Source: Mesotoga sp. Brook.08.105.5.1 (lineage in GTDB: Bacteria > Thermotogota > Thermotogae > Petrotogales > Kosmotogaceae). Taken from it: DNA of 64,000 nt. A model generated the notes under the pieces. That model searched no databases. It was given only the letters and a program-made list of their open reading frames with translations, and was not told the DNA's origin. Shown in pieces: positions 33,406 to 41,220 of this stretch (positions are counted from its first letter, which is position 1; every line of letters begins with the position of its first letter). The stretch lies in contig NZ_AYTW01000004.1 in NCBI RefSeq assembly GCF_002752635.1, positions 62,001 to 126,000 of the forward strand, read 5' to 3'. Position numbers and translations under genes: made by a program.

Positions 33406-35187
33406 CTAGATCATCTTCCTCAGTGTATCAAGGAAATTCTCCTTGATAAAACTAATTCCCTTTTGCCAAAAGACAGGATCTGAGACATCTATGCCTACTT
33501 TCTGCAGAAGAGATTTGGGAGATTCCGATCCACCGCTTTCAAGTAAAGCGATATACTTTCTTCTGAAGACAGCCCCGTCCTCAAGGTATTTCCTGTACAA
33601 AGAAATTACGAGAAGCTGGGCGAAGTTGTAAGCATAACAATAGAAAGGGGTATGAAAGAAGTGAGGGATGCGAGCCCATTCGAACTCGCTTTCCGGGAGA
33701 AAATCAACGGTGTCCCCAAACATGAGTTTGAGCTCCTTGGAGTAAAGCTCGGATAGTTCTTCAAACGCCAGATACTCGCCTGACATTTTCTCGTGGGCAG
33801 AGATCTCGAACCTGGTGAACATGTTCTGCCTTGCGGTTGTTGCAAATATCTCTTCAATCCTGTTGACCAGAAAAGAGATCTTCTCCTCTCTTTCTTCAAT
33901 GTTTTTCAAAAGAAAGTCCGTCATAAGCATTTCAGAAAAAACAGAGGCTGTTTCGGCCATTGTAAGCGGCGTATCATAGTTAACTAGGGTCTGTTTGGAC
34001 GCCAGAACGCCGTGAAGGCCGTGGCCTAGTTCGTGTGCTAGTGTCAAAACGTCACTCATCTTGCCATTGTAATTGACAAGCACATACGGATGCATTCTTG
34101 GCGAGGCATACGCGCAGTAAGCTCCACTTCGCTTTCCCGGCATGATCGATCCATGAATATAATCCTCATCGAAGAATCTAGCAACTATACTTTCAATCCG
34201 GGGATCAAAGTTTCCCATAACCTCCAGAATCATCTTCTTCGCTTCCTGCCAATCAAATGTCCTGTCTGAAGTTCCAACAGGAGCATATATATCGCTGTGG
34301 AGAAGGGCTTCCCTCCCCATAATTGTCGCCTTCAGTCGGTAATAGTCGTGAACAACAGAATAACCATCAGTGGTGGCGTCGATGATACAATTCACTGCCT
34401 CATCTGAGACTTCGTTCAGTTCGTTCCTCATTGAAATAGGGGAATCATATCCCCTCTTGTCTGCTTCCAAGTCCCAATCTCTGGAAAGAGAATTGTAAAG
34501 ATTGGTCAGAACAATACTGTTTTCCTTCGCCTTTCTAAAGAGGCTTTCAAAGGCCTTCTTTCTAAGCTCCGAATCATGATCTCTTCTTAAAGTCTCCACT
34601 TCACTCTCTGTGAGCGTCTCTTCCGATGCACCGGTAGTAATTCTATACGTAAAACTCGATGTGAATTCATCATAGAGATTCAGAATCGCCTTCTTGCCCG
34701 TTATCTCTTTTAGAACCATAATTCTTTCTTCCGGCTCAGAAAGCATGTGCTTCCTTTGAGTTCGAATGAGATCGAGATGATGTCTGTAATCTGCTAGTTC
34801 GGTAGAATTCATAAGACTATTAAAGAAGTCCTCGGAGACTTTCGAAAGTTCGAGTTTCAGAAAGAGAAGCTTGCTTTCAAGTTGCGATTCAAGATCATCT
34901 ATCTTACGTAGGAGCTTCTGAACAGCTGGTTCCTTAGAGTCTGTTGAGTGGCTCAAGAACGAGAACATCGATAATCTGAAAAAACGGTTCATAAGGTCTT
35001 CTTCTCTTTCAATAGCTATCTTCAGTTCGCTAGCCTTGACACTCTCGGTCTGAATTCTCCCTTTGAAGTCTTTAATAAGCTTATCACTCTCACTTATCAG
35101 AATTCGTATGTCTTCTTCCAGGGAGGGATCGTCCGGCGAACCGTACAATCTTGTGAGATCCCACTGAACCAGTTTCCCCTCACTCAA
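33406..35187 (-). CDS. pepF: Oligoendopeptidase F (M3 family)
   Basis: Zinc endopeptidase acting on oligopeptides, cytoplasmic (no signal peptide). The HExxH motif is in LAHELGHGLHG, with the third Glu ligand about 25 residues on in MAETASVFSEML. An N-terminal M3-type helical region contains the VQWDLTRLYGSPDDPSLEED start typical of PepF. TTG 35187 is 11 nt from AGGAGGT and overlaps the preceding stop by 8 nt, giving 593 residues; a TTG at 35220 would add 11. It is the last gene of the DUF1175-macroglobulin-peptidase operon. Confidence 0.93.
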   Translation of the reverse strand: MSEGKLVQWDLTRLYGSPDDPSLEEDIRILISESDKLIKDFKGRIQTESVKASELKIAIEREEDLMNRFFRLSMFSFLSHSTDSKEPAVQKLLRKIDDLESQLESKLLFLKLELSKVSEDFFNSLMNSTELADYRHHLDLIRTQRKHMLSEPEERIMVLKEITGKKAILNLYDEFTSSFTYRITTGASEETLTESEVETLRRDHDSELRKKAFESLFRKAKENSIVLTNLYNSLSRDWDLEADKRGYDSPISMRNELNEVSDEAVNCIIDATTDGYSVVHDYYRLKATIMGREALLHSDIYAPVGTSDRTFDWQEAKKMILEVMGNFDPRIESIVARFFDEDYIHGSIMPGKRSGAYCAYASPRMHPYVLVNYNGKMSDVLTLAHELGHGLHGVLASKQTLVNYDTPLTMAETASVFSEMLMTDFLLKNIEEREEKISFLVNRIEEIFATTARQNMFTRFEISAHEKMSGEYLAFEELSELYSKELKLMFGDTVDFLPESEFEWARIPHFFHTPFYCYAYNFAQLLVISLYRKYLEDGAVFRRKYIALLESGGSESPKSLLQKVGIDVSDPVFWQKGISFIKENFLDTLRKMI

Positions 35188-35737
35188 TTCTTCGTTTACC
35201 TCCTTCTCCAAATTCTGCAATCAATTCTCCAAAAGATCTATTGCGAAGAAGCCTGGATACTTCTACCCAACAAGTATAACTGTACGAACGATATGTCATG
35301 AAATCCATCTTCGAGTAATCAAGAGTCTTCACCTCGTCAAGAATGATTTCTTCTCGACCAACCCACTCACCCGTAATATAACAGACAATACCTTCTTCTA
35401 GCCAATAGGGAAGTTGGTAATCCCTCAGAATGAGATGGCTCATCTCATGTGCAAGCGTTCGCGGCAGGTTCTGAACTAGAGTAAGCGGCTGCACAATAAT
35501 CGTGTTTCCAGTTGCTGCAGCGAGAAACCAATAAGCTATGCCGGAGAGTTCAGAGAACTCTCCAGCCGAGGAAGCGATAATTAGAATATAGGTACCATTT
35601 ACGGATCTTCCCGTTAGTCTTTCAAGCAAGCTTCTATAGCCTTCAAGCTCTGGCATTTCCCATGAGACATACGCGCTTGTGAAACAAAAAACCGTCACTT
35701 GAAGTAGCAAAATGACAACAATAGCTAGTGCTTTCAT
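35180..35737 (-). CDS. Secreted gluzincin-type peptidase (peptidase MA-like)
   Basis: 185 residues. A signal peptide (residues 3-20) is followed by a small domain with zinc motif LAHEMSHLI (H97, E98, H101) and, 13-14 residues on, WLEEGI, whose Glu is the expected third ligand. This spacing is that of peptidase MA-type domains, which usually form the catalytic core of larger proteins. The start overlaps the macroglobulin stop (ATGA) without its own good binding site, so synthesis should depend on translation of the macroglobulin gene. Its product is probably exported beside it. Substrate unknown. Confidence 0.75.
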   Translation of the reverse strand: MKALAIVVILLLQVTVFCFTSAYVSWEMPELEGYRSLLERLTGRSVNGTYILIIASSAGEFSELSGIAYWFLAAATGNTIIVQPLTLVQNLPRTLAHEMSHLILRDYQLPYWLEEGIVCYITGEWVGREEIILDEVKTLDYSKMDFMTYRSYSYTCWVEVSRLLRNRSFGELIAEFGEGGKRRIE

Positions 35738-40215: not shown

Positions 40216-40230
40216 TGCCTTCACTCTCCA

Positions 40231-41220
40231 TCACTTGCGGGGTAGAAACTTGAAGGAATATACCCCGAGATAGTTTTCGTTGTTGTATATTGGCAACCAT
40301 TGATAAGGCATCGTTCGTAAATAATCATCTATTCTCCAGAGCTTCAGAACACCTGAATCACTTTCGGAAAGAGGTCCGGTATGATAGATCAACCCATCGC
40401 CAGTGTATATCATCGAGTGAAAAGTTGATGGAGAGGGGTGGTGAAAAAAGAGTATATCTCCAGGTCTTGCAACGCTGAGATCTCTGCCCTTAAATACCAT
40501 ACTACTACGAATCAGGTTGTAAGCATCGGCAAAATAAGTGAATTCTCCGGTGTTACTTATGAAGATTCTATTCTTCAGAATTGGTATATCCGGGTAGTTG
40601 TACTTCTTAACGTCAGGTACCGCTTGCAAGTCTATTCCTGTCTTTTCGTACCAAAGCTCTTTGTCAATACCCGAATCAAGAAACCACTGTTCATCATGCC
40701 TTTTGAGAGCCTCTCTAGCTGCGAATCTTATTAGCCCGCTGCAATCCCTCTCTTGAGAGCTCCACCTGCTGGAAAACTCAATAACCTGATAAGCTGAAAT
40801 ATTCACAAACCAAGTTCTGAAGTTCTCTGTATCTTCCAAATCAAGCACTAGATTGTCGGGGAAGCCATCTGAATTGATATCGATGAAATCCTCGAACTCT
40901 AGAGAGACAGTCTTACGTGCTTTGAATAGTCCTTGAAACGAAATAACAACTACCGCGTCGCTATCGTCAGCAACGAAAGAGTATTGAGTATACCCTCGAT
41001 CGGCTGACAAGCTTTCCAGGGTTGCTCCTCTCACGTATGTTAAGGAAGGCCTTCCGAAAAGCGAATCAGGAACCTTAACTGTGAAAGCGTCGCCACGTCT
41101 AATACCGTTTCTATTAACAACTATCCGTTCAAAACTACCTCTAAAACTCAAATATGTCGCAGATAGGAAAGTAGTTATCAAGAGAGCCAGAACGAAATAC
41201 ACAAGACTGATTCTTTTCAA
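40231..41220 (-). CDS. DUF1175 protein (YfaT-like), NlpC/P60-like
   Basis: 329 residues from TTG 41220, seven bases after GAGGGGG. One N-terminal membrane segment or signal anchor (residues 5-25) is followed by a beta-rich region, then a C-terminal half with RDCSGLIRF and TFHSMIYTG, the Cys and His arrangement seen in NlpC/P60 amidases. DUF1175 proteins accompany bacterial macroglobulins, as yfaT accompanies yfaS in Escherichia coli; the function is not established. Here it directly precedes the macroglobulin, and PGDILFFHH resembles the usual pre-His strand in NlpC/P60 folds, so a peptidoglycan or peptide amidase is plausible. Confidence 0.8.

What the first reader, a model, noticed from the sequence alone, without database searches (positions are those of the whole stretch)
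33406..41220. Coupled operon: DUF1175/NlpC-like protein, alpha-2-macroglobulin, secreted HExxH peptidase and PepF
Four genes are joined by overlaps or gaps of at most 15 nt. The DUF1175-macroglobulin pair corresponds to E. coli yfaT-yfaS. The addition of a small secreted gluzincin whose start is fused to the macroglobulin stop, and then a cytoplasmic oligoendopeptidase, is unusual. One possibility is a protease trap with a dedicated protease or activator; another is a peptide uptake and turnover system. The macroglobulin carries the CxEQ thioester motif, so covalent trapping is feasible.
Basis: partly seen in the sequence, partly recalled or inferred. Interest (0 to 1): 0.6.

Follow-up and report, generated by a model that had tools for sequence, protein, structure and literature searches.

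The report
Macroglobulin operon with dedicated zinc peptidase
A bacterial relative of our blood's protease-trapping protein is made together with its own small secreted zinc peptidase; this partnership runs through a whole phylum and several others, and the peptidase matches the unannotated tail of a known E. coli/Pseudomonas partner protein, which suggests how these bacterial 'immune' proteins may be processed.

Summary
DUF1175, a thioester (GCVEQ) alpha-2-macroglobulin (A2M), a 185-aa secreted HExxH protein ('GLUZ') and PepF are coupled on the minus strand at 41220-33406. PepF is a lineage-specific add-on, found in part of the genus only. The other three form one module. In 103 Thermotogota genomes, 54 carry all three and 43 none; nearly every exception is a contig end or a deletion. 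The three are lost together in several lineages, and GLUZ usually overlaps the A2M stop codon. HExxH plus a downstream Glu are invariant in Thermotogota. A confident model (pLDDT 90) resembles gluzincin peptidases.

The module recurs in Atribacterota, Deinococcota, Spirochaetota and Acidobacteriota. In Acidobacteriota GLUZ is the C-terminal domain of a transpeptidase-SpoIID-GLUZ protein. This matches MagE/YfaQ (DUF2300), the gene directly after the macroglobulin in the Pseudomonas mag and E. coli yfa operons, whose C-terminus carries a conserved HExxH that I did not find described. The window is therefore a reduced mag/yfa-type operon (yfaT-yfaS-yfaQ order) that keeps the thioester. In published work, deleting magE appears to block MagD processing. 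My preferred mechanism is a dedicated macroglobulin-processing peptidase in an envelope-defence complex. The partnership is well supported; the substrate is inferred.

The parts
40231..41220 (-). DUF1175 / MagC / YfaT-like secreted NlpC/P60-like protein (329 aa)
   Evidence: PF06672 1.5e-53; phmmer to solved MagC 7bk8 E 4.6e-26
40741..40743 (-). candidate catalytic Cys of DUF1175 (RDCSGL); candidate His codons at 40417-40419 and 40381-40383
   Evidence: Cys, His and His columns invariant in 19 sequences incl. E. coli YfaT, present in MagC
35734..40224 (-). thioester alpha-2-macroglobulin, 1496 aa, Sec signal
   Evidence: MG2, A2M, TED, bMG10 Pfam hits above cut-off; solved TEP1 and YfhM as relatives
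37975..38079 (-). approximate bait region (residues ~716-750), short variable core with conserved GMGD and conserved flanks
   Evidence: position before the A2M/MG7 domain and alignment of nine genus members
37333..37344 (-). thioester motif CVEQ (residues 961-964)
   Evidence: present in every A2M that reaches the TED
35180..35737 (-). GLUZ: secreted minimal gluzincin zinc peptidase, 185 aa; ATG overlaps the A2M stop by 4 nt
   Evidence: model pLDDT 90.4; gluzincin fold
35435..35449 (-). HEMSH zinc-binding/catalytic motif (residues 97-101); third ligand Glu115 codon at 35393-35395
   Evidence: invariant in 21 Thermotogota sequences
33406..35187 (-). PepF-like M3 oligoendopeptidase, cytoplasmic; lineage-specific passenger of the operon (alternative start 35220)
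   Evidence: TIGR02290 above cut-off; adjacency limited to part of the genus

Best explanation
The window holds a reduced mag/yfa-type macroglobulin operon. Three secreted proteins form one functional module: DUF1175 (MagC-like, NlpC/P60 fold), a thioester A2M, and a small gluzincin zinc peptidase (GLUZ) that is the stand-alone counterpart of the C-terminal domain of MagE/YfaQ. PepF is a passenger in this sub-clade. Most likely mechanism (inferred): in the periplasm the A2M, held with DUF1175 at the peptidoglycan, guards the envelope against invading proteases or wall-attacking enzymes, and GLUZ is its dedicated processing peptidase, cutting the A2M at a defined site to mature or prime it, as MagE appears to be needed for MagD processing in Pseudomonas. 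Shown here: the operon, the conserved partnership, the intact catalytic residues and the fold class. Supported but not proven: homology to the MagE/YfaQ C-terminus. Inferred: that A2M is the substrate, and the defence role.
For: Junctions and order conserved across the phylum, with GLUZ start overlapping or abutting the A2M stop. Phylum co-occurrence: 54 with all three, 43 with none of 103. Where GLUZ and A2M or DUF1175 have become unlinked (f4, f8, some f2 genera) the genomes still keep all three. HExxH and Glu115 invariant in 21 divergent Thermotogota sequences. Fold comparison: M9 collagenases Z 10.3, then mostly M1 aminopeptidases. Outside the phylum the Thermotogota profile gives one hit, or one plus a weak second, in 16 of 21 genomes; in the loci whose maps I read, the hit sits after the A2M. 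Acidobacteriota carry transpeptidase-SpoIID-GLUZ as one protein; Spirochaetota carry the same parts as split genes. MagE/YfaQ have the same parts, with a C-terminal HExxH conserved in all sequences compared; profile match 86% probability. Proteobacteria without full MagE have a ~125-158 aa DUF2300 HExxH gene, in one case with the same 4-nt overlap. [quoted passage not shown] MagC binds peptidoglycan (cited in PMC10318531); MagD protects against T6SS wall-targeting effectors (PMC12663445); delta-yfaQ resembles envelope and peptidoglycan mutants (PMC12282094).
Against: No experiment shows that GLUZ or MagE cuts a macroglobulin. In Pseudomonas the 100-kDa MagD form was tied to MagB (and MagC in the figure legend), and MagE did not form a stable complex with MagD (PMC5764988); its authors proposed a chaperone or signal-peptide role for MagE. 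The profile link between GLUZ and the MagE C-terminus alone is modest (74-86%, single-pair hhalign). A few non-Thermotogota GLUZ copies have lost the second His (L148, L184).
Confidence: 0.5

Rival explanations
1. GLUZ works on the wall side: it trims peptidoglycan stem peptides or wall-bound proteins as part of a repair complex, and the A2M only protects that complex from proteases. The gluzincin domain is then a wall enzyme, not an A2M processor.
For: Its homologues are fused to or encoded with a penicillin-binding transpeptidase and SpoIID; DUF1175 is NlpC/P60-like with conserved Cys-His-His; delta-yfaQ resembles delta-mepS, delta-mepK and delta-nlpI (PMC12282094); MagD protects against wall-attacking T6SS effectors (PMC12663445).
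Against: In Thermotogota the transpeptidase and SpoIID parts are absent next to A2M, and SpoIID is undetected in the window's genome, while GLUZ stays coupled to A2M. Gluzincins are not a usual peptidoglycan-peptidase fold (own knowledge).
Confidence: 0.25
2. GLUZ is a clearance peptidase: after a foreign protease has been trapped, it degrades the spent A2M or the peptides released, resetting the system.
For: Co-secretion with A2M and an intact active site.
Against: Does not explain the published need for MagE in MagD processing, nor the link to wall enzymes.
Confidence: 0.15
3. Peptide uptake and turnover operon: the secreted peptidase makes peptides that PepF finishes in the cytoplasm.
For: PepF overlaps GLUZ in this genome and six of nine genus relatives.
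Against: PepF is absent from the locus in G003, G006, G007 and all other genera sampled; no peptide transporter lies in the operon.
Confidence: 0.04

Closest known systems
Pseudomonas aeruginosa mag operon (magABCDEF; MagD type II macroglobulin)
   Same: MagC = DUF1175 directly before, and MagE directly after, the macroglobulin; the MagE/YfaQ family (DUF2300) C-terminus carries HExxH like GLUZ
   Different: Window lacks DUF2138- and DUF2135-type genes in the operon and the transpeptidase/SpoIID parts; it keeps the thioester that MagD lacks
E. coli yfaA-yfaT-yfaS-yfaQ-yfaP
   Same: T-S-Q order equals DUF1175-A2M-GLUZ
   Different: YfaQ is 549 aa with transpeptidase-like and SpoIID regions; GLUZ is 185 aa with the peptidase part only
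Type I bacterial macroglobulin (YfhM with PbpC)
   Same: CxEQ thioester, A2M domain set; solved relatives
   Different: No pbpC neighbour, no lipobox seen, DUF1175 neighbour instead
Gluzincin (MA-clan) peptidases, e.g. M9 collagenase, M1 aminopeptidase
   Same: HExxH plus downstream Glu, matching fold (Z 10.3 and ~7)
   Different: Much smaller; no Pfam family above cut-off

Membership tests
mag/yfa type II macroglobulin operon | DUF1175 (MagC/YfaT) gene upstream of the macroglobulin | tested here: met
mag/yfa type II macroglobulin operon | macroglobulin lacks the CxEQ thioester (type II as defined in PMC5764988) | tested here: not met
   GCVEQT present, conserved in all A2M reaching the TED
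mag/yfa type II macroglobulin operon | DUF2300 protein (MagE/YfaQ) directly downstream | tested here: inconclusive
   No PF10062 hit to GLUZ; same position, shared HExxH region, 86% profile probability
mag/yfa type II macroglobulin operon | DUF2138 and DUF2135 genes in the operon | tested here: not met
   Neighbouring genes are DUF4440, FMN-binding, PepF and MatE; the rest of the genome was not tested
Type I macroglobulin (YfhM-PbpC) | CxEQ thioester | tested here: met
Type I macroglobulin (YfhM-PbpC) | pbpC neighbour | tested here: not met
Gluzincin (MA clan) peptidase | HExxH with a downstream Glu ligand, invariant | tested here: met
   H97, E98, H101, E115 invariant in 21 Thermotogota sequences
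Gluzincin (MA clan) peptidase | gluzincin fold | tested here: met
   model pLDDT 90.4; VIA-align top rows are M9, then mostly M1 peptidases at moderate Z; plain Foldseek gave no significant hit
Gluzincin (MA clan) peptidase | zinc-dependent proteolysis | not testable with these tools
   needs purified protein
M3 oligoendopeptidase (PepF) | TIGR02290 above cut-off | tested here: met
   577.9 against 561.7 bits

The most novel reading that the evidence does not exclude
The zinc peptidase is a dedicated activator of a thioester macroglobulin, a bacterial counterpart of the complement convertase step: on wall damage it cuts the A2M, exposing the thioester to tag or trap intruders, and the same unrecognised peptidase domain does this in MagE/YfaQ of proteobacteria.
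Probability: 0.15. Interest if true: 0.9.

Novelty: new variant of a known kind. Interest (0 to 1): 0.62.

Why it matters
Bacterial macroglobulins have been known for about twenty years, but their activation and the role of their operon partners are open. This locus reduces the system to three genes and points to one testable enzyme. It also indicates that MagE/YfaQ, described so far as transpeptidase-like plus SpoIID-like, has a third, zinc-peptidase domain, which would turn its published MagD-processing phenotype into a concrete hypothesis. Thermophilic versions from Thermotoga relatives may be convenient for biochemistry and structure work.

Tried and rejected
PepF as part of the module: rejected, adjacency limited to a sub-clade. 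Chance small ORF: rejected, purifying selection and conservation. Known anti-phage defence family: no PADLOC hit. Sequence search of GLUZ against solved structures: nothing useful. Plain Foldseek of the GLUZ model: no hit with E below 0.75; second look by VIA-align used instead. MagE model from six close sequences: poor (pLDDT 50), not used for fold claims. First DUF1175 profile too divergent to scan with. The broader profile A4 is less specific in Acidobacteriota: it also hits general 300-600 aa peptidase-MA proteins, so only strong or linked hits are counted. The profile comparison contained Thermotogota sequences by mistake and was redone; the acidobacterial set may still include entries cut at a wrong HExxH-like position (one search shows such cuts for L172 and L195; one search took the last match in each protein). 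Robert-Genthon 2013 and Zouhir 2021 are not held; they are cited only through other papers.

Full report
Observation. The four genes are present as described on the minus strand: DUF1175 41220..40231, A2M 40224 or 40215..35734, GLUZ 35737..35180, PepF 35187 (or 35220)..33406. Junctions are a 6- or 15-nt gap, a 4-nt ATGA overlap, and an 8- or 41-nt overlap. A divergent DUF4440 gene lies upstream and a MatE gene 98 nt downstream. The A2M carries GCVEQT. GLUZ has a signal peptide by eye, HEMSH and a downstream Glu, and no Pfam hit above cut-off.

Conservation within Thermotogota. In the window's genus all ten genomes keep GLUZ next to A2M. In other genera of the family, and in family f6, the order DUF1175-A2M-GLUZ is kept; in families f3, f10 and f11 and part of f2 it is A2M-GLUZ-DUF1175. 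Over 103 genomes of the phylum, GLUZ (E <= 1e-15) is found in 56, A2M in 57, DUF1175 in 57; 54 have all three and 43 none. A2M without GLUZ: G065 and G071 (contig ends) and G092, where the A2M is cut off inside the TED and GLUZ is missing. GLUZ without an A2M-domain hit: G008 and G099, both with an A2M fragment running off the contig. Fisher's p is 6e-23, but genomes are related; the safer statement is that the three genes are missing together in several separate groups (genera g2 and g9, part of g3 and g6, families f5 and f7). In some genomes GLUZ or DUF1175 sits elsewhere (f4, f8, some f2) and all three are still present, so linkage alone does not explain co-occurrence. PepF is adjacent only in G000, G001, G002, G004, G005, G008 and G009, which are also the closest by A2M identity.

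What GLUZ is. In 21 diverse Thermotogota sequences only I80, H97, E98, H101 and E115 are invariant, the pattern expected for an active gluzincin. dN/dS is low within the genus. The model has mean pLDDT 90.4. Plain Foldseek finds nothing significant; realignment by VIA-align puts M9 collagenases first (Z 10.3 to 8.2), followed mostly by M1 aminopeptidases. Z near 7-10 is only moderate, but the consistent peptidase class fits the motif.

Beyond the phylum. A scan of species genomes with DUF1175 returned 80 loci in many phyla. The Thermotogota GLUZ profile hits a gene just after the A2M in Atribacterota (L153, L159) and Deinococcota (L205), and, after one or more genes, in Zymogenaceae (L148), Spirochaetota (L197, L200) and many Acidobacteriota. 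Searching the whole genomes of 21 such loci gave one hit, or one plus a weak second, in 16 of them; I matched hits to the A2M locus by coordinates for L148 and L170 and did not check every one. In an independent draw of 119 Acidobacteriota genomes, nine carry DUF1175; in five (G106, G108, G297, G299, G377) a GLUZ-profile hit lies about 6.6-9 kb away on the same strand, consistent with the position after the A2M. In the 119 the broader profile also hits unrelated peptidase-MA proteins, so weak unlinked hits are not counted.

The MagE/YfaQ link. In Acidobacteriota the hit is the C-terminal part of a ~900-1000 aa protein with a transpeptidase domain (4e-42) and SpoIID (2e-21) (L170). Spirochaetota relatives have DUF2135, transpeptidase, SpoIID and HExxH genes in a row, and a Leptospirales locus (L187) shows DUF2135 and an HExxH gene in the same layout. 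YfaQ and Burkholderia MagE, the gene directly after the macroglobulin, contain a SxxK region, SpoIID (7e-6, 1e-8) and a C-terminal HExxH conserved in all sequences compared. Some proteobacteria have only a ~125-158 aa DUF2300 HExxH protein; in L222 its start overlaps the preceding frame, which matches the A2M profile weakly (8e-8), by 4 nt, and DUF2135-LprI follows. Profile comparison of GLUZ relatives with the MagE C-terminus gives 86% probability, with aligned G-P-Y, Ile and HExxH. Position, domain company and motif together make homology likely; the profile score alone would not. A 2025 study of YfaQ reports transpeptidase-like and SpoIID-like parts and a Sec signal and does not mention a peptidase (PMC12282094). 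In the library searched I found no description of the HExxH part; subscription papers are not covered.

Function. DUF1175 is the MagC family (7bk8, E 4.6e-26). A review calls it inactive and peptidoglycan-binding (PMC10318531), yet the Cys and two His are invariant in my alignment including YfaT and present in MagC. MagD lacks the thioester, traps protease non-covalently, and is processed from 165 to 100 kDa; [quoted passage not shown] MagD protects against some wall-targeting T6SS effectors (PMC12663445). From this I infer an envelope-defence module with GLUZ as A2M-processing peptidase. The bait region of the genus has a short variable core with conserved flanks and a conserved GMGD, compatible with a defined cleavage site but not evidence of it. 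Steps shown: operon, partnership, catalytic residues, fold class. Steps inferred: substrate, timing, defence role.

Verdict. New variant of a known kind: a three-gene, thioester-bearing relative of the mag/yfa operon, with a stand-alone zinc peptidase that points to an overlooked domain in MagE/YfaQ.

Noticed in passing
L207-L213 (Burkholderia/Paraburkholderia), A2M genes: Macroglobulins in full mag-type operons here keep GCAEQT at the thioester position, although type II macroglobulins are described as lacking it.
   Followed up: partly
L221:374-1438, L222:1848-2936, L224:1778-2845: DUF2135 protein fused to an LprI lysozyme-inhibitor domain next to the macroglobulin and DUF2300 peptidase, hinting at defence against wall hydrolases.
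   Followed up: no
window 40231-41220: DUF1175 N-terminal extension carries DxNxDGFPD, resembling a calcium-binding loop, conserved in most Thermotogota homologues.
   Followed up: no
L102:1784-4327, L103:5695-8238, L104:858-3212: In family f4 the GLUZ gene lies apart from A2M, beside a 784-847 aa protein; the two scanned (L102, L104) have no significant Pfam family.
   Followed up: partly
L231 (G092): A2M truncated inside the TED after the thioester, with GLUZ missing and DUF1175 directly following; looks like one deletion.
   Followed up: partly
L243 (G095): A second, 1352-aa thioester A2M paralogue without GLUZ or DUF1175 beside it.
   Followed up: no
L148:16923-17567, L184: GLUZ homologues that lost the second His of HExxH (HEVCL, HELAL), possibly inactive or sequencing errors.
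   Followed up: no
window 42510-43898: A dnaA-like gene lies just upstream of the operon; in G001 the operon is near the start of the main contig, so it may sit close to the replication origin.
   Followed up: no
L131/L138 (Marinitoga lauensis): A2M gene split over several frames: decay or assembly error.
   Followed up: no
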